DNA of 21,111 bases. Origin: a virus. How positions within the stretch are numbered: the first letter of the stretch is position 1; every line of letters begins with the position of its first letter. The translations under genes and the position numbers were made by a program. The stretch covers positions 1-21,111 of IMG/VR virus record IMGVR_UViG_3300030090_002235; one strand, 5' to 3'. Shown piece by piece: positions 291-9,760 of this stretch. The notes under the pieces are model-generated. The model had not been told where the DNA came from. It worked only from the letters and a program-made list of their open reading frames with translations, and ran no database searches.

Positions 291-903
291 CTTTTCTGCA
301 TCAAGAGGTATACAAACTGCAGTAAAAGATTATGTTAATCGTGCAATAGATGATATAATAAACTCTGACACTGAATGGCCCTTTACGGTTATTAATAAAA
401 CTTTTACAACTACTGCAGGCACACGTCTTTATACTAGATCTGCACTAAGCACTACAAATACAAAAACGGTAGACTTTGATAGTTTTACATTTCTTGAAGC
501 TGCAGATAAAAAAGAAATTACACTTGAGTTTATAACTTACAGTGAATATCTTGACAACTACCATGAAAGAGATACAGACCCTACAGGTAACTCACGAGCC
601 ATACCAGTGTATGTATACGAAGATCCACAAAATAATATTGGTTTGTCTCCTGTGCCTGATAAAAGCACATACACCGTAAAGTATTATTATTACTCTACTC
701 ACACAGCGTTAAGTGCTTCAACAGACACATCATCGATACCTGAAAGGTTTGAAACTGTAATAATAGAAAAAGCAAAATATTATGCTTTTGTTTTACGTGG
801 CGATGTGCAAAACGCACAGCTTGCACAAATGCAATTTGAAAAATCAATCAAGCGTATGCGTGTTGAATTAATTAACAAACAATTATATATGAGAGCCGTT
901 TAA
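217..903 (+). CDS. Head-tail adaptor protein (SU10-adaptor-like)
   Basis: This 228-residue protein resembles the adaptor family of short-tailed phages (SU10-type), which forms a ring between the portal and the tail nozzle. Visible support is the N-terminus MASSYLVLVNNVLRDLNEV, a helical 'AVKDYVNRAIDDI' segment with 'TEWPF' (residues about 36-57), a beta-rich middle with tyrosine-rich strands (TYTVKYYYYS), and a C-terminal helix (about residues 176-222: ERFETVIIEKAKYYAF, then QLAQMQFEKSIKRM). The length of roughly 230 aa fits adaptor proteins. The ATG at 217 is preceded by a purine-rich stretch (AAGAGAAG) and gives the N-terminus expected for the family. The gene overlaps the next one by the A of TAATG at 901-905, so the two are probably co-translated. 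The family call is from recognised pattern, not from a search. Confidence 0.75.
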   Translation: MASSYLVLVNNVLRDLNEVELTSSNFSASRGIQTAVKDYVNRAIDDIINSDTEWPFTVINKTFTTTAGTRLYTRSALSTTNTKTVDFDSFTFLEAADKKEITLEFITYSEYLDNYHERDTDPTGNSRAIPVYVYEDPQNNIGLSPVPDKSTYTVKYYYYSTHTALSASTDTSSIPERFETVIIEKAKYYAFVLRGDVQNAQLAQMQFEKSIKRMRVELINKQLYMRAV

Positions 904-2666
904 TGCCAGAGTTAAGTCCGACAGGTGCGTTTCCTTTTATATGTGAAGGTGGCTTAGTAGCTAACAGATCTACATTTATAATGAAACCCGGTCAAGCTTT
1001 ACAACTTGAAAACTTTGAGCCTGATATAGAAGGGGGTTACCGTAGAATAAATGGTTATCAAAGACATATAAGACAAATTGTTCCACATACTAGTTCATCT
1101 AGTGAATCAGTACTTATGATTGCTACGTTTGCTAATAAAACTCTCGCAGCACGAGGGGAAAAAATATTTAGTTCTGCGTCTACACATTTGGCAAAAGGAT
1201 CTACTAATTCAATTGCTGCAGATACTACAATGACAGGTTCAGGAACTATAACTGTAAAAAGCACATCAGGTTTTAGCTCAAGTGGCACGTTGCAAATAAA
1301 TAGTGAGCAGTTTACTTATACTGGTGTCACGTCTACTACATTTACAGGTGTGACAAGGGCTGCAAACAGTACAAGCGCTGCAGCTCATAGTGCTACTACT
1401 GACGCATCTAGAACTGTAGTTTCAGAAAGTTGGACTGAAAGAGATACAGGAAGAACTAACGCAGGCAAATATTCTTTTGAACGTTTTAATTTTGACGGTA
1501 ACGATAAAATAATTGTTGTAGACGGTACAAATGATCCAACAGTATTTAATACATCTCTTAGTGCAACAGATGTTACAACAAGTAGTGTAGAAGGTGCAAG
1601 CATAGTTGCATCATTTAAAGAACACATGTTTTATGCAGGCATGTCTAGCACACCTCAAGAAGTCGTATTTAGCCAACCGTTTGACGAAGATGCGTTTAGC
1701 AGTGGATCTGGTGCAGGAAGTATAAAAGTTGATGATACAGTAGTTGGACTTAAAGTATTCCGTGAAAATTTATTTATCTTTTGTGAAAATAGAATATTTA
1801 AATTATCAGGTAGCTCTAGTTCAGATTTTGCAGTATCGGCTGTAACAAGAGACATAGGTTGCATAAACGGAAAGACTATTCAGGAATTTGCAGGTGACTT
1901 AATATTCTTAGGTCCTGATGGATTACGAACAGTTGCAGGTACTGCAAGAATCGGTGACGTTGAATTAGGAACAATAAGTTCTAATGTGCAGTCTATATTT
2001 GACGACAATATAACAGACGCATCTGTTTTTGAGTCAATCGTTATACCAGAAAAAACTCAGTATCGTTTGTTTTTTTCAAAGGCAGGAGCATTAGAAACAA
2101 GAACGGAAGGTTTGATATGTGTTTTGAAAGGGCAACAAGGGGGTCAACAAGCGTATGAATTTGCAAGATTAAAAGGTATCAAGCCTGCAGCCACCGACAC
2201 ATTTATACTTGTTGGTGATATTCTTGTTCTTCACGGTGGATTTGACGGTTACATATACAGACAAGAAGAGGGATCAACATTCGATGGCACAGCCATAAAC
2301 GGAACGTATCGTAGTCCTGACTTAACAATGAATGACCCCGGTATAAGAAAACACATGCAAAGAGTCATTGTAAATTACAAACCTGAATCAGTGATCGATG
2401 CAGATCTCTTTGTTAGATATGATTACGAATCTTCTGACTCACTTAGACCTGCAGCTTATCCGTTAGATTCTACAGATATAGCAGGTATATATGGAACATC
2501 AGTTTATGGCACACCCACTTATGGGGGTACTGCACAACCGTTGGTACGACAACCTGTAGAGGGTTCAGGATTTGCAGTGGCACTAAGAGTAAACGATGGA
2601 GGTACAACTGACCCATATTCACTAAAGGGTTTTCAGTTGGAATATCAATTAGGAGCTAGACGTTAA
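903..2666 (+). CDS. Nozzle-like tail protein with an inserted Gly/Ser/Thr beta domain
   Basis: This 587-residue protein starts with a signature I associate with podovirus nozzle/stabilisation proteins: MKPGQALQLENFE followed by GGYRRINGYQRH (residues about 26-56). The remainder is rich in short beta strands with propeller-like spacing (for example FKEHMFYAGMSSTPQEVVFS, FRENLFIFCENRIFKL, GDLIFLGPDGLRTVAG). Residues about 113-162 form a separable small domain (ITVKSTSGF, EQFTYTGVTSTTFTGVTR) seen in many phage tail proteins. Nozzle proteins cap the short tail below the adaptor and hold the fibres. Position directly after the adaptor supports this. The start ATG overlaps the upstream stop (TAATG). 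A tail-tip or other beta-propeller tail protein is the alternative. Confidence 0.65.
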   Translation: MPELSPTGAFPFICEGGLVANRSTFIMKPGQALQLENFEPDIEGGYRRINGYQRHIRQIVPHTSSSSESVLMIATFANKTLAARGEKIFSSASTHLAKGSTNSIAADTTMTGSGTITVKSTSGFSSSGTLQINSEQFTYTGVTSTTFTGVTRAANSTSAAAHSATTDASRTVVSESWTERDTGRTNAGKYSFERFNFDGNDKIIVVDGTNDPTVFNTSLSATDVTTSSVEGASIVASFKEHMFYAGMSSTPQEVVFSQPFDEDAFSSGSGAGSIKVDDTVVGLKVFRENLFIFCENRIFKLSGSSSSDFAVSAVTRDIGCINGKTIQEFAGDLIFLGPDGLRTVAGTARIGDVELGTISSNVQSIFDDNITDASVFESIVIPEKTQYRLFFSKAGALETRTEGLICVLKGQQGGQQAYEFARLKGIKPAATDTFILVGDILVLHGGFDGYIYRQEEGSTFDGTAINGTYRSPDLTMNDPGIRKHMQRVIVNYKPESVIDADLFVRYDYESSDSLRPAAYPLDSTDIAGIYGTSVYGTPTYGGTAQPLVRQPVEGSGFAVALRVNDGGTTDPYSLKGFQLEYQLGARR

Positions 2667-4663
2667 TGGGAGCAACGTATACAAGACAATCATCATATAG
2701 TGATGGAGACGTAATACAAGCGTCAGATACCAATAATGAATTTGATCAGTTGCTTGCTGCGTTCGCAGCCAGTTCAGGTCACACTCACGATGGAACTACA
2801 GGCGAAGGTGGCCCTATAACAAAACTGCTTGGCACATCCCTTACATTAGGAGATGGCACTGCAGGCACAGATATAACTGTTACTTTTGATGGTGAAAGTA
2901 ACGATGGTGTCCTTAAATGGATGGAAGATGAGGATTATTTTGAGTTCAGTGACGACATACTCGTTGCTTCTACAGAAAAAATACAGTTTGGTGATACGGC
3001 TAGTTTTATTCAACAAAGTTCCGATGGTGTTTTAAGAATAGATGGTGAAGCAACTATAAATCTTAATGCTTCTTCAAATGTTGATGTTAGCAATGATATG
3101 AGGTTGAGGTCAGATTCTAGTGTTATAAGTTTTGGTGCAGACAGTGATGTTTCAATTACTCATGTGGCAGATACTGCACTACTTTTAAATAGTTCAAGAC
3201 AATTACAATTTGGTGATTCTGGTACTTATATTCATCAAAGCACAGACGGACAACTCGACCTCGTAGCAGATACAGAAATACAGATTGCAGCTACGACCAT
3301 TGATATAAATGGTAATGTAGATATATCAGGCACACTAACAATAGGTAGTGCAGGTATATCCGAAGCAGAGCTTGAAATACTTGATGGTGCAACGGTCACA
3401 ACAGCAGAGTTAAATTTACTTGATGGTGTAACATCTACTACTACTGAATTAAATATAATAGATGGTGACTCGTCTATAGGAACGACAACAGTATCAGATG
3501 GACATGGTATTGTGATGAATCACGGTGGCACTATGGCACAAACCACAGTGCAAACTTTAGCTGCTTACCTTGATGACGAAATAACTGCAATGCCTAATCT
3601 TGTAACTACTGCAGCCACAACAGTAGGTGCATTAAATAGTGGTTCGATAACAAGTGGTTTTGGTGCTATAGATAATGGTTCATCAGCCATAACAACCACA
3701 GGTACAATTACGTATGGTAATTTATCTGATGGCACTATAACAATAACTGCATTTGTTGATGAAGATGATATGTCATCTAATAGTGCTACTCTTGTACCAA
3801 CACAACAATCTGTAAAGGCTTATGTTGATACACAAATAACTGCTGAAGATTTAGATGTTACGTCAGATAGTGGCACAATAGCTATTGACTTAGATAGTGA
3901 AACTTTTACCATAGCAGGGGGAGAGGGCATTGACACTTCAGCTACAGGCAACACTGTTACAATAGCAGGAGAAGATGCAACCACATCTAACAAAGGTGTG
4001 GCTTCATTTAGTTCTGATAACTTTGCAGTATCTAGTGGAGCAGTGACAATTAAAGATGGTGGTGTCGTAACTGCTGAATTGGCAGCGGATGCTGTCACTG
4101 GTGCTAAGATAGCAGATGACGCTATAGATTCTGAACACTACACAGACGGTTCAATAGACACTGCACATCTAGGTGATTTACAAGTAACAACTGCTAAGAT
4201 AGCTGCAGATGCCATCACAGGTGCAAAGATAGCAGACGATGCCATAAACTCTGAACATTATACAGACGGTTCAATAGACACTGCACATTTGGGTGATTTA
4301 CAGGTCACAACTGCTAAGATAGCAGCAGACGCTATTACTGGTGCTAAAATAGCAGACGATGCTATAAACTCCGAACACTACACAGATGGCTCAATAGATA
4401 CTGCACACATAGCTGACTCACAAATTACGACTGCCAAGATTGCTGCAGACGCAATCACAGAAGCTAAGATTGCCGATAACGCAGTTGAAAGCGAACATAT
4501 AAATGACAATGTAATATCAGGGCAAAGTGCCTTAACTTCAGGTCTTGCAACAACAGATGAATTACTAGTGAGTGATGCAGGAACAATAAAAAGAATGGAT
4601 GTTAGTGTCCTAACAGCATTGACAGACGATAATGCAACTGCACTTGCGATTGCACTCGGTTAA
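2666..4663 (+). CDS. Repeat-rich tail fibre protein
   Basis: This 665-residue fibre-type protein is rich in Thr, Ser, Asp, Ala and Gly. It begins with a helical N-terminus (residues about 18-35, SDTNNEFDQLLAAFAASSGH) followed by an HTHDGTTGEGGPI collar, an arrangement often found where fibres attach to the virion. Two similar blocks, QFGDTASFIQQSSDG and QFGDSGTYIHQSTDG, resemble the beads of beta-helical shafts. Residues 234-272 hold three 13-residue ILDG/LLDG repeats, and residues 473-612 hold about three and a half 40-residue repeats of the AKIADDAI/SEHYTDGSIDTAHL type. The C-terminus ends TDDNATALAIALG with no S74 chaperone, unlike two of the later fibres. The start overlaps the previous stop (TAATG), with AGGAG at 2651-2655. 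Likely role: trimeric shaft or adhesin. Receptor unknown. Confidence 0.8.
   Translation: MGATYTRQSSYSDGDVIQASDTNNEFDQLLAAFAASSGHTHDGTTGEGGPITKLLGTSLTLGDGTAGTDITVTFDGESNDGVLKWMEDEDYFEFSDDILVASTEKIQFGDTASFIQQSSDGVLRIDGEATINLNASSNVDVSNDMRLRSDSSVISFGADSDVSITHVADTALLLNSSRQLQFGDSGTYIHQSTDGQLDLVADTEIQIAATTIDINGNVDISGTLTIGSAGISEAELEILDGATVTTAELNLLDGVTSTTTELNIIDGDSSIGTTTVSDGHGIVMNHGGTMAQTTVQTLAAYLDDEITAMPNLVTTAATTVGALNSGSITSGFGAIDNGSSAITTTGTITYGNLSDGTITITAFVDEDDMSSNSATLVPTQQSVKAYVDTQITAEDLDVTSDSGTIAIDLDSETFTIAGGEGIDTSATGNTVTIAGEDATTSNKGVASFSSDNFAVSSGAVTIKDGGVVTAELAADAVTGAKIADDAIDSEHYTDGSIDTAHLGDLQVTTAKIAADAITGAKIADDAINSEHYTDGSIDTAHLGDLQVTTAKIAADAITGAKIADDAINSEHYTDGSIDTAHIADSQITTAKIAADAITEAKIADNAVESEHINDNVISGQSALTSGLATTDELLVSDAGTIKRMDVSVLTALTDDNATALAIALG
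3365..3481 (+). repeat. Three tandem 39-base repeats (LLDG motif) inside the fibre gene
   Basis: Three units of 13 codons follow each other: AELEILDGATVTT, AELNLLDGVTSTT and TELNIIDGDSSIG. The DNA differs between units while the pattern xELxhhDG is kept. This bead is common in marine phage fibres and probably forms a short strand-turn repeat. Confidence 0.8.
4082..4501 (+). repeat. Tandem 120-base repeats (3.5 copies) inside the fibre gene
   Basis: Units begin at 4082, 4202, 4322 and 4442 (last one partial). Each encodes 40 residues of the pattern AADAxTGAKIADDAI, SEHYTDGSIDTAHL, then GDLQVTTAKI. In the second half of units 1 and 2 the base changes are synonymous (CTA/TTG, CAA/CAG, GTA/GTC), while unit 3 diverges to HIADSQITT. 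The spacing is exact, with no insertions. Confidence 0.92.
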
Positions 4664-4680: not shown

Positions 4681-5022
4681 ATGGCAAATACATTTAGACT
4701 TGTAAACAACGCAGTGATGCCCACTAGTGCAGGCAGTCCTGACGCTTTGTACACTGCAGGTTCAGGTAAAACAGCAATAGTTTTAGGATTAACACTTGCA
4801 AATGTACATACATCACAAGTTACAGCAACAGTTACAGTAACAGACACCACTGCAAGTATAACTTCACATATTGTAAAAGACATACCAATACCTGTAGGTA
4901 GCTCGATAGAAATAATGTCTGGAAACAAAATAGTCGTGGAAGCGACAGATATAATAAAAGTAGATTGTTCTGTGGCAGATAAAGTTAGTGCCACATTAAG
5001 TATAATGGAGATTGATGTCTAA
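4681..5022 (+). CDS. Small beta-sandwich-like virion protein, function unknown
   Basis: The protein has 113 residues, almost all predicted beta strand by composition: MANTFRLVNNAVMP, TAIVLGLTLANVHTSQVTAT, DIPIPVGSSIEIMSGNKIV, then a final LSIMEIDV strand. From memory, proteins of this pattern (a 'GLxLANxxxSQxTA' strand, 'KDIPIPxGSS', a 'GNKIVxExxD' strand) recur beside fibre genes in marine phages, where they are annotated as hypothetical. No signal peptide or membrane segment is visible. It sits between two fibre genes and its TAA overlaps the next ATG (TAATG at 5020-5024). It may be a fibre-base or decoration protein. This role is inferred from context only. Confidence 0.7.
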   Translation: MANTFRLVNNAVMPTSAGSPDALYTAGSGKTAIVLGLTLANVHTSQVTATVTVTDTTASITSHIVKDIPIPVGSSIEIMSGNKIVVEATDIIKVDCSVADKVSATLSIMEIDV

Positions 5023-6224
5023 TGCCGTACATAGGAAAAGAACCTGCCGATATAATCGCAACTGCTGTTGATACAACTACAGGCACATTTAGTGGTGCAG
5101 TCACTGCGGCATCTTTGGCTGCCGATGGGGGGATTACTGTTGACAATATAAGTATTGATGCCACAGAGATAGATTTATCTAGTGGAAGTTTTACAATAGA
5201 TAGTGCAGCTAATATCACGCTTGATTGTGGCACTGGTGAATTTTTGTTTAACAATGGTGGTAATGGCAATCTTTTAAAAATACAAGCTGATAGCAGTAAT
5301 GTAAACTTTATCGGTATGGTTCAAGATAAAGATTTAGTGTTCAAAGGCAATGATGGTGGTTCTACGATAACTGCTCTTACACTTGATATGTCTGATGGTG
5401 GTAGAGCGGCTTTTGCACACAATGCAGATTTTGTTGATGGTAGAGGTATAAGGCTTGGTGATGGAAATGATTTTCAGTTGTATCACGATGGTAGTAATTC
5501 ATATATACAAAACTCCACTAATAATATAATTATTGACAATACTGCAAGTGACCAAGACATAATATTTAAAGTTAATGATGGTGGTTCTTCAACAGAAACA
5601 GCAAGATTTGATGCTTCTTTTGATGCTTTTGTTCTTAGAGATGGAGGTGGAGCGGCTGTTTCAGCAGGAAAATTAGAAATAAATGCGAGTGGTAGTTCTT
5701 ATAATTTAATTGCTCTTAAAACTACAAGGACATCGACAGGTACTAATTTTATAGAATTTTTTAATTCATCTGGAACTAATGCTGGTGAAATAAATCATAA
5801 TGGTAGCACTACAGTAAATTATTCCACATCTTCTGATTACAGATTAAAAGAAAATGTTACATATGACTTTGATGCAACATCAAGACTTAAACAATTAAAA
5901 CCTGCAAGGTTCAATTTTATAGCAGACCCAGATGTTACTATGGATGGATTTCTTGCACATGAAGTTCAAAGTATTGTTCCCATTGCAGTAAATGGAGATA
6001 AAGACGAAATAAAAAAATGGAATAAAGAGGAGATAGAAAGGGGATTTGCACCAGATGGTGCATCAGAAGGTGATAATAAACTAGATGATGATGGGAATCC
6101 TATTCCTAAATATCAAGGCATAGATAACAGTCATCTTGTACCATTACTTACAAAAGCATTGCAAGAACAACAAGCTACAATAGAGACATTGACAGCTAGA
6201 ATTACAGCATTGGAGAGTGCATAA
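5022..6224 (+). CDS. Tail fibre with self-cleaving S74 chaperone domain
   Basis: This 400-residue fibre starts MPYIGKEPADI, a short virion-attachment motif common in marine fibres. A beta-rich shaft follows, with GIRLGDGNDFQLYHDGSNSY near residues 142-161 and NGSTTVNYSTSSDY at about 259-272. The C-terminal part is an intramolecular chaperone of peptidase family S74: SDYRLKEN places the nucleophile candidate Ser271 five residues before Lys276, as in the known Ser-Lys dyad. RFNFIADPDV, DGFLAHEVQSIVP, YQGIDNSHLVPLL and a terminal coiled coil (EQQATIETLTARITALE) complete the domain. The S74 domain trimerises the fibre and is then released by autocleavage before Ser271. The start codon overlaps the previous stop. 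The receptor-binding region would lie just before the cleavage site. It is homologous in its last third to the fibre at 8489-9760. Confidence 0.88.
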   Translation: MPYIGKEPADIIATAVDTTTGTFSGAVTAASLAADGGITVDNISIDATEIDLSSGSFTIDSAANITLDCGTGEFLFNNGGNGNLLKIQADSSNVNFIGMVQDKDLVFKGNDGGSTITALTLDMSDGGRAAFAHNADFVDGRGIRLGDGNDFQLYHDGSNSYIQNSTNNIIIDNTASDQDIIFKVNDGGSSTETARFDASFDAFVLRDGGGAAVSAGKLEINASGSSYNLIALKTTRTSTGTNFIEFFNSSGTNAGEINHNGSTTVNYSTSSDYRLKENVTYDFDATSRLKQLKPARFNFIADPDVTMDGFLAHEVQSIVPIAVNGDKDEIKKWNKEEIERGFAPDGASEGDNKLDDDGNPIPKYQGIDNSHLVPLLTKALQEQQATIETLTARITALESA

Positions 6225-8176
6225 TGGCATATTTAGGAGTCAGTCCATCTAACGGAGTACGTAAAGTACACACCTATACTGCTACAGCATCACAGACAAC
6301 ATTTAGTGGTGCAGGAGCAGAGAACATAAGTTTGAGCTACAGAGATAGCACTTACATTGATGTGTATCAAAATGGTGTAAAGTTAGGTGATGCAGACTAC
6401 ACTGCAACAAGTGGCACATCAGTTGTGTTGGGTACAGGAGCTACTGCAAGTGATTTAGTTGTGGTTGTGGTATATGATGTATTCTCTGTAGCAGACACTG
6501 TAAGTAAAACAGATGGTGGACAGTTTGATGGTGCAGTCACATTTGCAGGTGCTTTCACCTCATTAGGTATAGACGATAATGCAGATGCTACTGCTATCAC
6601 TATAGATAGTGGGGAAAATGTAGCTATTGGTGTAACTTCAAAAAACTCTGCAAATAATGGAAGTCTTACTATTGGTCATACTGGTATGACTAAAATAACT
6701 GGTACTGCTAATGGCAATGCTGATGAATTAATTCTTATTGGTGCAAATGCTTCAGCTAATGTTGGTATGAGTATAATTAGTAATAATGCAAATCAAGGGA
6801 TTATATATTTTGGTGATGAAGATGATACTGATAGAGCAGGTTTTATATATGACCATAATGGTGATTATTTAGCAATAAACACAAATGATGGAGAACGTGT
6901 ACGCATTGACTCGTCAGGGAGATTAATGATCGGCACAACTACAGAAGGTGAAGCAAGTGCAGATGACCTCACCGTTGCTAGTAGTGGTAACACAGGTATT
7001 ACAATTCGTGCTGGAACATCTAGTAGTTCTTCACTTTACTTTTCTGATGGTACAAGTGGTACAGCCGAATATGATGGATATATTGCTTACAGCCACAGTT
7101 CAAGAGCAATGGTTATATTGTCTGGTATTAATTATGGATTGACTATTGATGGTGCAAACAGAATTTTAAAATTAACTGATTCTGGCACAGAACGTTTGCG
7201 AGTAGACAGCAGTGGCAAAGTTGGTATTGGTACTAGTAGTCCATCTGGAAAACTCCATGTAAACGACACAAGTGGTAACGACCAACTAATAGTAGGAAAT
7301 ACATCAGAAAGTACACAATTAAGAGTAAGAGTTCTTGAAGATGATCAATGTATTTTGATGGCAAGAGATGGTGATACAGACAGAAGATTAGTGTTTCAAA
7401 CTGGGATTACGGAGAGAGCAAGAATTGAAACGAATGGTAAATTTCTTATTGGAACTAACTCAGATACAGATGGTAAACTCAATGTTTTTACTAATGATGA
7501 TACTGGTTATGCCGCTATGTTTCATAATGATGGAAATAATTCGAATAGAAAAGGAATTTTAATTAAATCTGGTTTTGATAGTGCTGGTGGAACAAATAAA
7601 TCTATTGATATTGCAGATGGCAATGGTGATGTACAAGGACAAATAACATTCAGTAGTGGCACGGTTACATATGGTGCTTTTACAGCATTTCACCATTGTA
7701 TAATACCAAATTCAGACAATGATTCAAATAGTCCAGATAATGCCTACCCTTATGGAACATTATTAGAAATTACAAGCATAACTTACACACAAAAAAATGG
7801 TGTAAATACCGAAAGAGGAATTAGATATAATGTACAAAAATCATCTTCAGCAAAATCTAAATCTTTATTAGGTGCTTATGGTTCATCAATGAATGATGAA
7901 AATAATGATAATCTTCATCAAGCCTTAGTTTTAGGTGATGGTCATATTCTTTGTAACAATGAAAATGGCAATATAGAAATAGGTGATTATATTTGCTCAT
8001 CATCAAAAATTGGTGAGGGTATGAAAGCAACATCTATTTGTAATACAATAGGAATAGCAAGAGAAGCTATAAAATTTTCAAATAGCACAGCAGTATTAGT
8101 TGCTGTTGAATATGGGTACAGACAATTTGTACCAGAAGATTTAGAAACAAGAATTAAAGCATTAGAAGGAGCATAA
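6224..8176 (+). CDS. Tail fibre with an alternative (non-S74) C-terminal domain
   Basis: This 650-residue fibre has an N-terminal domain (residues 1 to about 105) of MAYLGVSP plus strands (HTYTATASQTTFSG, STYIDVYQNGVKLGDADYT, VVVVVYDVFSVAD) like the particle-binding domain of other marine fibres. The shaft carries GERVRIDSSGRLMIG, GTERLRVDSSGKVGIGTSSP (around residue 320-340) and ARIETNGKFLIGT beads. From about residue 488 to the end a globular domain follows: YPYGTLLEITSITYTQKNG, LLGAYGSSMN, ALVLGDGHILCNNENGN, IGDYICSSSKIGEGMK, IGIAREAI, then VAVEYGYRQFVP and a short coiled coil ETRIKALE. There is no SDxRLKEN motif, so this is not S74. It resembles the other class of C-terminal maturation domains (peptidase G2/IMC type), but no catalytic residues could be assigned. 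TAATG start overlap; SD-like GGAG a few bases upstream. Confidence 0.82.
   Translation: MAYLGVSPSNGVRKVHTYTATASQTTFSGAGAENISLSYRDSTYIDVYQNGVKLGDADYTATSGTSVVLGTGATASDLVVVVVYDVFSVADTVSKTDGGQFDGAVTFAGAFTSLGIDDNADATAITIDSGENVAIGVTSKNSANNGSLTIGHTGMTKITGTANGNADELILIGANASANVGMSIISNNANQGIIYFGDEDDTDRAGFIYDHNGDYLAINTNDGERVRIDSSGRLMIGTTTEGEASADDLTVASSGNTGITIRAGTSSSSSLYFSDGTSGTAEYDGYIAYSHSSRAMVILSGINYGLTIDGANRILKLTDSGTERLRVDSSGKVGIGTSSPSGKLHVNDTSGNDQLIVGNTSESTQLRVRVLEDDQCILMARDGDTDRRLVFQTGITERARIETNGKFLIGTNSDTDGKLNVFTNDDTGYAAMFHNDGNNSNRKGILIKSGFDSAGGTNKSIDIADGNGDVQGQITFSSGTVTYGAFTAFHHCIIPNSDNDSNSPDNAYPYGTLLEITSITYTQKNGVNTERGIRYNVQKSSSAKSKSLLGAYGSSMNDENNDNLHQALVLGDGHILCNNENGNIEIGDYICSSSKIGEGMKATSICNTIGIAREAIKFSNSTAVLVAVEYGYRQFVPEDLETRIKALEGA
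8166..8171 (+). promoter_or_regulatory. Ribosome binding site for the DUF7936-like gene
   Basis: AAGGAG lies within the last codons of the preceding fibre gene, 6 bases before the ATG at 8178. It is one of the strongest Shine-Dalgarno matches in the window. Confidence 0.65.
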
Positions 8177-8177
8177 A

Positions 8178-8489
8178 ATGGCAGTAACATGGACAATATC
8201 TAATATGGATAGAGCAATCAAACTTGATGGCAAAGATGATGTAGTAACAACTATACATTGGAGAGCAAGTGATACAGACAGTGATGGCAATACTGGTTCA
8301 TCATATGGTTCTGTAGGTGTAACACTAGGCAAAGACTTTATAGCATACAAAGACATTAAAGAAGCAAATGCCATACAATGGGCAAAGGATGCTTTGGGTG
8401 CAGATGAGGTCAAGAGCATAGAAGATAGTATTGCTAATCAGATAGCAGAACAGAAAACACCAACAACAGCAAGTGGAGTATCTTGGTAA
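8178..8489 (+). CDS. DUF7936-like small protein between fibre genes
   Basis: The protein has 103 residues: a strand pair MAVTWTISNMDRAI and DDVVTTIHWRASDTD, then SSYGSVGVTLGKDFIAYKDI, a helix with IQWAKDALGADEVKSIEDSI, and a C-terminal QKTPTTASGVSW. This order (W at residue 5, HWRA near residue 29, a 'WxxxxLG' helix, final 'GxxW') matches what I recall of the DUF7936 family, which lies next to tail-fibre genes in many marine phages. Function unknown. A fibre accessory, assembly or tail protein is plausible. The TAA at 8487-8489 overlaps the ATG of the next fibre gene, suggesting coupled, roughly equal expression. Confidence 0.75.
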   Translation: MAVTWTISNMDRAIKLDGKDDVVTTIHWRASDTDSDGNTGSSYGSVGVTLGKDFIAYKDIKEANAIQWAKDALGADEVKSIEDSIANQIAEQKTPTTASGVSW

Positions 8490-9760
8490 TGACAAGAGCA
8501 AGTGATTTAGCGAGACTAATAGGAGCAGGTGCTACCATAAATGATGGCACAACTATAACTACTGCTGATAATACTGCACAATTAGAACTTGTATCAACAG
8601 ATGCAGATTCAGGCATAGGTCCTCATCAAGTGTTTTACAGAAACTCAGCAAGTCCTGCTGATGCAGATTTATTATGTGAGTTAGACTTTAGAGGTCGTAA
8701 CGATAATAGCCAAGATGTGAATTATGCTACTGTAAATGTAAAAGCTAATGATGTTACTGATGGTGAAGAAGACGGAGAATACATTCTTCAAGTTATGACA
8801 GCAGGAAGTGTTGACACTACCATGCACATTAAACCTACTGAAATAGTTTTTAATGAAGACCAAATTGACAGAGACTTTCGTGTTGAATCTGATGGTAATG
8901 CAAATGCGTTTTTTCTTGAAGCCAGTACTGGTCGTATTGGTATGGGTACAAGTTCTATGGGTGATTATCATGCAAACAGAGATGACTTAGTTCTTGAAAC
9001 AAGTGGAAGCACTGGCATTACTATTGTAGCAGGTGGTTCTGGACATCAATCTGCAATCGCATTTGCAGATGGTACTGGTGATAGTGAGGAAGCTGCAGGA
9101 CTTCTCATGTATAATCATAATGGTAATACAATGCACTTTAATGTTGCTGATGGACAAGTGGCACAATTTAAAGATTCTAATGTAGGTATCTTTTCTACAG
9201 AAACGATTGCTAGATTATGTGTTGAATCAAATTTTTCTTCTTTAACAGGTATTAATGTAAAAAATAATAATAGTAGTGCTAGTGGTGCTTTTGTCAATTT
9301 TACTAATTCTTCTGGAACACAAGCAGGAAGCATAAGTCACAATGGCTCAACAACTGTAGCTTATAACACTTCTTCAGACCACAGACTAAAAGAAAATGTA
9401 TCTGATTTGACAGATGCAACAACAAGATTAAAAAAATTACAGCCAAAAAGATTTAACTTTATTGCAGATGAATCTAATACTTTAGTTGATGGATTTCTTG
9501 CACATGAAGTACAAGATATTATTCCTGAAGCAATAACTGGTGAAAAAGATGGTGTTCAAGATATTGGTACAATAAAAGATGAAGATGGAAATATTATAGA
9601 TACTGATGCACCTAAAGCTAGAGCAACGGATAAACAAACATGGACAAAAACTGGAACTGAAAATGTATATCAAGGCATAGACCAAAGCAAACTTGTGCCT
9701 TTACTTGTAAAAACTGTGCAAGAATTAGAAGCACGTATCGCAACACTAGAAAGCAAGTAA
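8489..9760 (+). CDS. Tail fibre with S74 chaperone domain (second S74 copy)
   Basis: The fibre has 423 residues from the ATG at 8489, chosen over an in-frame TTG two codons upstream because it makes the TAATG overlap used by neighbouring genes and gives MTRASDLARLIGAGATI, a common fibre N-terminus. GGAG at 8475-8478 is the likely ribosome site. The shaft includes GRIGMGTSSMG, DDLVLETSGSTGITIVAG and ETIARLCVESNFSSLTG beads. The chaperone begins SDHRLKEN: Ser296 and Lys301 are the predicted autocleavage dyad. KRFNFIADES, DGFLAHEVQDIIPEA, YQGIDQSKLVPLL and a coiled-coil end (ELEARIATLESK) follow. The part from GTQAGSISHNGSTTV onward closely parallels the 400-aa fibre, except for a longer insertion after GEKDG (TIKDEDGNIIDTDAP). 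A shaft block (DDLxxxxSGxTGITIxAG) is shared with the 650-aa fibre. Confidence 0.87.
   Translation: MTRASDLARLIGAGATINDGTTITTADNTAQLELVSTDADSGIGPHQVFYRNSASPADADLLCELDFRGRNDNSQDVNYATVNVKANDVTDGEEDGEYILQVMTAGSVDTTMHIKPTEIVFNEDQIDRDFRVESDGNANAFFLEASTGRIGMGTSSMGDYHANRDDLVLETSGSTGITIVAGGSGHQSAIAFADGTGDSEEAAGLLMYNHNGNTMHFNVADGQVAQFKDSNVGIFSTETIARLCVESNFSSLTGINVKNNNSSASGAFVNFTNSSGTQAGSISHNGSTTVAYNTSSDHRLKENVSDLTDATTRLKKLQPKRFNFIADESNTLVDGFLAHEVQDIIPEAITGEKDGVQDIGTIKDEDGNIIDTDAPKARATDKQTWTKTGTENVYQGIDQSKLVPLLVKTVQELEARIATLESK

What the first reader, a model, noticed from the sequence alone, without database searches (positions are those of the whole stretch)
7688..8176. Fibre with a different C-terminal maturation-type domain next to two S74 fibres
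The 650-aa fibre ends in a globular domain (ALVLGDGHILCNNENGN, IGDYICSSSKIGEGMK) and a short coiled coil, in the place where its two neighbours have S74 chaperones. It may be another self-processing or trimerisation domain, similar in layout to peptidase G2-type domains, whose active residues are not evident. Two chemistries in one phage would be notable.
Basis: partly seen in the sequence, partly recalled or inferred. Interest (0 to 1): 0.5.

Follow-up and report, generated by a model that had tools for sequence, protein, structure and literature searches.

The report
Interchangeable self-assembly cap on phage fibre
One of this virus's tail fibres ends in what looks like a folding-and-trimerising cap from a widespread but uncatalogued family, shaped like the self-cleaving cap of phage phi29 and exchangeable with the better-known S74 cap, but without the known cutting residues of either.

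Summary
Observation confirmed. The 650-aa fibre (6224-8176) ends in a discrete domain (about 7670-8137) plus a ten-residue helix; the fibres on both sides carry S74 domains. The domain has no convincing match in Pfam, NCBIfam, PHROGs or PDB sequences. It belongs to a C-terminal family found in many viral contigs and some bacterial genomes; tblastn of eight queries against 50,697 phage records found it only in Colwellia phage 9A. Two AlphaFold models, from different alignments, have the beta-tulip fold of the phi29 gp12 C-terminal autochaperone (Z 10.7, 10.0) and of capsid decoration proteins (up to 11.7). One related fibre carries this cap on nearly the same shaft start that bears S74 in the window. 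At the strand that aligns with gp12's cut site (Ser691|Asp692, Glu695) the family has Thr-x-x-His (69 of 69 close relatives, Thr or Ser; 109 of 110 broad-family loci not cut by a locus end), not Asp-x-x-Glu. Best reading: a trimerising autochaperone cap working like gp12's, possibly released by a cut before Thr487. It fails membership of Peptidase_G2 (no profile match, no catalytic Glu) and of S74.

The parts
6224..8176 (+). 650-aa tail fibre ORF carrying the cap
   Evidence: its shaft part matches PHROGs tail-fibre families 18345 and 9942
7670..8137 (+). C-terminal beta-tulip cap (fibre residues 483-638)
   Evidence: AlphaFold model; a fifth or more of the VIA-align rows span model residues 56-211; 72 relatives
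7670..7672 (+). Tyr483, conserved shaft-end residue, four before Thr487
   Evidence: Tyr four before Thr/Ser in 69 of 69 close relatives that cover it, but 34 of 94 in the broad set
7679..7693 (+). Phe486-Thr487-Ala-x-His490 motif; proposed cut between Phe486 and Thr487
   Evidence: F[TS][AG]xH in 69 of 69 close relatives covering it; in A4 Thr and His 96 of 96; aligns by structure with gp12 692-695, register uncertain by about two residues
7985..7987 (+). Asp588 of the GDxI motif
   Evidence: 62 of 62 in A2; in the broad set Asp was part of the search pattern, so not independent there
8141..8170 (+). short C-terminal helix (residues 640-649), likely coiled coil
   Evidence: helix 213-222 in the model
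5832..5990 (+). Peptidase_S74 cap of upstream fibre (ORF 5022-6224)
   Evidence: PF13884, 28 bits, residues 271-323
9374..9535 (+). Peptidase_S74 cap of downstream fibre (ORF 8483-9760)
   Evidence: PF13884, 39.3 bits, residues 298-351

Best explanation
The domain is a C-terminal trimerising autochaperone cap with the beta-tulip fold of phi29 gp12's C-terminal domain. Three chains meet through the caps, the caps register the shaft and drive its folding, and the cap is then probably released by a cut between Phe486 and Thr487, as S74 and G2 caps are. Shown here: homology to a large C-terminal family, the predicted fold, a case of interchange with S74 at the same junction, and near-total conservation of Thr-x-x-His at the strand that aligns with gp12's cut site. 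Inferred: trimerisation, chaperone action, the cut and any catalytic role of Thr487 and His490. I put the trimerising-cap part at about 0.85 and the cut, given that, at about 0.5.
For: Fold: VIA-align Z 10.7, rmsd 2.4 over 105 residues to 3gqh (gp12 692-854), Z 10.6 to 3suc; a second model from a distant member (L209, alignment A4) Z 10.0, rmsd 3.7 over 116. In both 3gqh alignments the first aligned pair is the motif Thr with gp12 Asp692, the first residue of that entry. The uncleaved gp12 entry 3suc has Gln where Glu695 stands, and 3gqh begins at Asp692. Sequence trace to G2: profile score 30.1, E 9.6e-4 for one comparison; none of 200 column shuffles reached it (best 27.8; one shuffle run failed and counted as 0) and the reversed alignment gave 14.8. 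Swap: relative fibre L014 shares 113 of the first 120 aligned residues, and 170 of 303 overall, with the window's S74 fibre up to ...SGTVTY / STTVAY, then carries this cap instead of S74. In the window's two S74 fibres and in 6 of 11 relative contigs with an S74-like motif the S74 Ser stands four after a Tyr, as the Thr does here. The cap is more conserved than the roughly 49 residues before it: median pairwise identity 0.64 against 0.47, 1,883 of 1,891 pairs, near-identical pairs left out. In the broad set the GDxI stretch lies 50-67 residues from the protein end in 117 of 117 loci with a closed end (3 open).
Against: No experiment shows cleavage or trimerisation. The catalytic Glu of gp12 is not conserved. 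Profile comparison of the close relatives alone with G2 gave no family-level match (probability 0.7%), the broad one only 22%, and G2 against the Colwellia 9A domain gave none (0.1%). Free-standing capsid decoration proteins share the fold, one scoring slightly higher than gp12 (8qsy, Z 11.4 and 11.7), and by Foldseek's own ranking they come first. In 5 of 11 contigs with an S74-like motif the Tyr rule fails, and it holds in only 34 of 94 broad-family caps. Thr and His could be structural.
Confidence: 0.45

Rival explanations
1. A retained trimerisation foldon: the same beta-tulip trimer, but never cut off; Thr487 and His490 hold the trimer or the shaft junction together.
For: Beta-tulip decoration proteins form trimers on capsids, with no cutting mentioned in the passages read (PMC7602432), and match as well as gp12. 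The G2 catalytic Glu is absent. No cleavage data.
Against: Among columns at least 95% filled in 96 diverse caps, the only polar residues conserved at 97% or more are Thr, His, one Tyr and one Asp that the search pattern selected; Thr and His lie at gp12's cut strand, and the only substitution of the Thr seen among close relatives is Ser (2 of 69). A related fibre has it where the window has S74.
Confidence: 0.36
2. A receptor-binding head that stays on the fibre tip and touches the host.
For: It is the C-terminal end of a tail fibre, where many phages place receptor-binding heads (general knowledge).
Against: The cap is better conserved than the shaft before it, is joined to N-terminal parts of 147 to 1,141 residues, counted from the preceding stop codon (57 loci), occurs in viral contigs and genomes of very different organisms, and replaces S74 in one pair of fibres.
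Confidence: 0.12
3. A true Peptidase_G2 domain, too diverged for Pfam, with Glu-based cutting.
For: Fold and weak collinear profile signal.
Against: All 15 G2 members aligned here have Asp-x-[Ala/Gly]-Glu at the site; the window family has Thr-x-x-His. PF11962 does not match the window.
Confidence: 0.05

Closest known systems
phi29 gp12 C-terminal autochaperone (Peptidase_G2, PF11962; PDB 3gqh, 3suc) and its marine relative Dpo31 D4 (28nb)
   Same: Predicted beta-tulip fold, position at the fibre C-terminus after a shaft, domain start aligning with gp12 Asp692
   Different: No profile match; Thr-x-x-His instead of Asp-x-x-Glu; lacks the long insertion with the NP-type stretch seen in most G2 members
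Peptidase_S74 intramolecular chaperone (PF13884)
   Same: Takes the same place on a shaft (L014 against window 8483-9760); hydroxyl residue four after a shaft Tyr in the window's fibres; short C-terminal helix
   Different: No S74 profile match; no Ser-Lys motif; predicted fold is mostly beta
Beta-tulip capsid decoration proteins (HFTV1, Sf11, TW1 gp56, T1, lambda gpD, phi29 gp8.5)
   Same: Fold (Z about 4 to 12)
   Different: Free-standing capsid proteins, not fibre C-termini; similarity of gpD to 3SUC already reported (PMC7602432, passages read)
C-terminal domain of Colwellia phage 9A central tail fibre J (YP_006489239.1)
   Same: Homologous: profile probability 94.6%, E 6.6e-8 for one comparison; Phe-Thr-Gly-x-His, GDxI..S....G.GM
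   Different: 28% identity to the window in A3; ends in Tyr-x-Cys-Gly instead of a helix; on a protein named after lambda J; function untested as far as I saw
UniProt A0A516M6P6 (488 aa, viral, unnamed in the tables)
   Same: Best predicted-structure match, 51% identity over the domain
   Different: Not annotated; sequence not available here

Membership tests
Peptidase_G2 (PF11962) | Pfam profile match | tested here: not met
   No PF11962 match in the window; phi29 gp12 itself scores 304 bits
Peptidase_G2 (PF11962) | gp12 C-terminal (beta-tulip) fold | tested here: met
   Z 10.7, rmsd 2.4, 105 residues; second model Z 10.0; predicted models, not solved structures
Peptidase_G2 (PF11962) | catalytic Glu695 in Asp-x-Ala-Glu at the start of the domain | tested here: not met
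   15 of 15 G2 sequences have D-x-[AG]-E; this family has T-x-x-H. Register from structure ranges only, uncertain by about two residues; that Glu is the catalyst is inferred from 3suc and recalled
Peptidase_G2 (PF11962) | self-cleavage after trimerisation, ATP-dependent release (recalled from Xiang et al. 2009, not read) | not testable with these tools
   needs expression
Peptidase_S74 (PF13884) | Pfam profile match | tested here: not met
   Neighbours match, this fibre does not; none of the 8 members of A1, window included, does
Peptidase_S74 (PF13884) | Ser-Lys dyad, S-D-x-R-L-K | tested here: not met
   The motif scan finds it in the window only in the two neighbouring fibres
Beta-tulip decoration proteins | fold | tested here: met
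   8qsy Z 11.4, 9ocb Z 10.9, 5wk1 Z 8.8
Beta-tulip decoration proteins | free-standing gene product that binds capsids | tested here: not met
   Here it is the end of a 650-aa fibre; in close relatives at least 147 residues precede it (57 loci). In the broad set one of 64 ORFs with an upstream stop (L205) is short. Capsid binding not testable
FTxxH cap family (named here; includes Colwellia phage 9A J C-terminus) | profile homology | tested here: met
   hhalign A2 against 9A: probability 94.6%, E 6.6e-8
FTxxH cap family (named here; includes Colwellia phage 9A J C-terminus) | Phe-Thr-[Gly/Ala]-x-His at domain start, C-terminal location | tested here: met
   Window FTAFH at 7679-7693; alignment, counts

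The most novel reading that the evidence does not exclude
A third chemistry of self-releasing fibre caps: on a beta-tulip autochaperone, Thr487 (directly after the cut bond) acts as nucleophile with His490, and perhaps Asp588, in place of the Asp/Glu of gp12 and the Ser/Lys of S74, so that one phage carries two unrelated self-cleaving caps that recombination can exchange.
Probability: 0.27. Interest if true: 0.7.

Novelty: new variant of a known kind. Interest (0 to 1): 0.5.

Why it matters
A common C-terminal module of environmental virus fibres has no entry in the family libraries searched. Recognising it as a beta-tulip cap tells annotators where the mature fibre may end, shows a cap exchanged independently of the shaft, and offers a direct test of whether the gp12 fold supports a second, Thr/His-based way of self-release.

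Tried and rejected
Pfam, PHROGs, NCBIfam and PDB sequence searches of the domain or of family members gave nothing convincing. Weak hits treated as noise: PHROG 673 'head scaffolding' (5 of 62 members, best E 9e-4), PHROG 766 'head decoration' (3 of 62, best E 0.037), XM1 gp53 minor capsid (3 of 8, best E 0.028) and DUF5892 (1 of 8, E 0.14), and coiled-coil families on the tail of L058. The decoration and XM1 hits may be faint true echoes, since XM1's capsid entry 7kmx shares the fold (Z 8.1). The first genome-contig scan found no relative of A1.

Direct G2 comparison with close relatives failed, as did G2 against Colwellia 9A; only the broadened alignment gave a trace. The global alignment does not place the motif Thr reliably, so the register rests on the structure ranges alone. 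The invariance of Asp588 in the broad family was discarded as evidence because Asp was in the search pattern. Of the 120 pattern loci, 10 are cut by the end of the locus before the motif region; one (L205) has a stop codon in frame 68 residues before the GD motif and so lacks the motif in its ORF; one (L221) has FTEGH, missed by my expression but with Thr-x-x-His; 108 matched. All 31 bacterial-genome loci have T-x-x-H, but one of the two search patterns contained that motif, so this is not independent.

A2 was made from the 72 loci: four truncated ones (L079-L082) and seven with identical caps were dropped, leaving 61 plus the window. The 69 are the 72 minus three that start after the motif (L080-L082).

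Full report
The window is a virus record of 21,111 bases with tail and fibre genes on the + strand. Fibre-like ORFs lie in a row: 2666-4663 (665 aa), 5022-6224 (400 aa, S74), 6224-8176 (650 aa, the finding) and 8483-9760 (425 aa, S74), with smaller ORFs between some of them.

The domain has no convincing sequence match in Pfam, PHROGs, NCBIfam or the PDB. A single-protein scan of IMG/VR found 10 loci, a profile scan 72 and a broader one 123, of which the best 80 were kept. The 72 are 45 to 97% identical in the best segment. The part before the cap measures 147 to 1,141 residues from the preceding stop codon (57 loci with that stop held). The cap is more conserved than the roughly 49 residues before it (median pairwise identity 0.64 against 0.47, 1,883 of 1,891 pairs).

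Against 50,697 annotated phage records, tblastn with the window domain and seven other queries from the family found one relative beyond chance, the C-terminus of the central tail fibre J of Colwellia phage 9A: E 0.07 with L057, 47% and E 1e-39 with the broad-family member L209; profile comparison with A2 gives probability 94.6%, E 6.6e-8. The window domain and L077 did not find it themselves. A genome scan with a narrower alignment gave 31 loci, in bacterial genomes or bins and two archaeal bins. A search of predicted viral structures lists an unnamed 488-aa protein at 51% identity first, the 9A protein second, and further down proteins of Pyramimonas, Tetraselmis and Marseille-type viruses and two labelled pre-neck appendage.

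Two AlphaFold models were made, one of the window domain with 62 sequences (mean pLDDT 81.8) and one of the distant L209 with 96 sequences (86.9). Both are confident inside the cap and poor before it; at the junction block the first has 51, the second 76. Both match the phi29 gp12 C-terminal domain (Z 10.7, rmsd 2.4, 105 residues; Z 10.0, rmsd 3.7, 116 residues) and capsid decoration proteins of the beta-tulip fold, with 8qsy slightly higher (Z 11.4, 11.7); Foldseek itself ranks decoration proteins above gp12. The link between gpD-like decoration proteins and 3SUC is already in print (PMC7602432, passages read). A marine podovirus tailspike, Dpo31, has a gp12-like D4 domain that trimerises alone and was found cut off in expression (PMC13317679, passages read).

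The gp12 cut site could be read from the PDB sequences: 3gqh starts at Asp692 and the pre-mature entry 3suc has Gln at 695; that Glu695 is the catalyst is inferred from this and from the G2 family's place among glutamic peptidases (recalled). All 15 G2 sequences aligned have Asp-x-[Ala/Gly]-Glu there. The tool gives ranges only, so gaps cannot be excluded. Thr or Ser, then His, are present in 69 of 69 close relatives that cover the site (67 Thr, 2 Ser). Thr-x-x-His is present in 109 of the 110 pattern loci not cut by a locus end; the exception, L205, has an in-frame stop upstream. In the 96-sequence alignment with 24% mean column identity, among columns at least 95% filled, Thr, His, one Asp (selected by the pattern) and one Tyr are the only polar residues conserved at 97% or more.

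Sequence comparison with G2 is weak but not empty: with the broad 119-sequence alignment, hhalign gives score 30.1, E 9.6e-4 for a single comparison, probability 22%, aligning the GDxI...G.G.K stretch; a second, collinear segment aligns the GTLL...LGAY stretch at E 0.22. None of 200 column shuffles reached 30.1 (best 27.8, one run failed). The close relatives alone gave probability 0.7%.

The strongest context evidence is a cap swap. The fibre of contig IMGVR_UViG_3300000101_001037 (L014) shares 113 of the first 120 aligned residues with the window's S74 fibre 8483-9760, and the alignment runs on to ...SGTVTY against STTVAY, weaker in the later part (170 of 303 identical in all); there the window fibre continues with NTSSDHRLKEN (S74) and L014 with GAFTAFH (this cap). 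In S74 proteins the Ser equivalent to endoNF Ser911 works with a Lys (PMC8326128, passages read); in the window's two S74 fibres it stands four after a Tyr, as the Thr does here, and so it does in 6 of 11 relative contigs with an S74-like motif, not in the other 5. S74-like motif ORFs occur near the cap fibre in 11 of 96 distinct relative contigs, a lower bound because only the flanks held were scanned, by a motif and not by a profile.

Mechanism. A C-terminal domain with the beta-tulip fold that is conserved while the shaft varies, and that can stand where a known autochaperone stands, most likely does the same job: nucleating a registered trimer. Whether it then leaves the fibre is open. The position and conservation of Thr-x-x-His favour a cut before Thr487; the lack of the G2 Glu, the low model confidence at the junction and the existence of beta-tulip trimers that work as capsid proteins argue for caution.

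Novelty. Fold and role are known kinds; the family is not in the libraries searched, and its conserved residues differ from those of both known self-cleaving caps. Nine searches returned no paper that I recognised, from listings and a few passages, as describing this family; the library holds open papers only, and no search used the motif itself.

Noticed in passing
window 8178-8489: A 103-aa gene directly downstream matches DUF7936 (PF25590, E 9.6e-28); relatives lie within 1,500 bases downstream of the cap fibre in 11 of 62 loci with enough DNA, some of them near-identical contigs.
   Followed up: partly
window 2666-4663: The first fibre of the row (665 aa) has no Pfam match and contains a near-identical stretch repeated about three times (DGSIDTAHLGDLQVTTAKIAADAITGAKIADDAINSEHYT), seen in the translation.
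   Followed up: no
window 903-2666: Best PHROG is labelled amidase (E 3.8e-81), but its place between a tail protein and the fibres suggests a tail tube or nozzle protein; the label looks doubtful.
   Followed up: no
L058:4001-4624: This relative's cap is followed by a longer stretch of LEARLD-type heptads, while many others end right after PW; the C-terminal helix looks like an optional extra.
   Followed up: partly
L301-L317: The domain occurs in genome bins labelled Patescibacteria, Deltaproteobacteria and two archaea, many of them ending in VVYTSG or a close variant; whether these are prophages was not checked.
   Followed up: partly
L135 (phi29 gp12) against PDB 8h2i chain cU: gp12's C-terminal domain has a short match (33 residues, E 7e-6) to a 1,343-aa protein named P22 in PDB 8h2i, hinting at a G2-like end there.
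   Followed up: no
L205:2399-2800 (approximate): A broad-family cap whose ORF is interrupted by an in-frame stop 68 residues before the GD motif; broken gene or sequencing error, not resolved.
   Followed up: no
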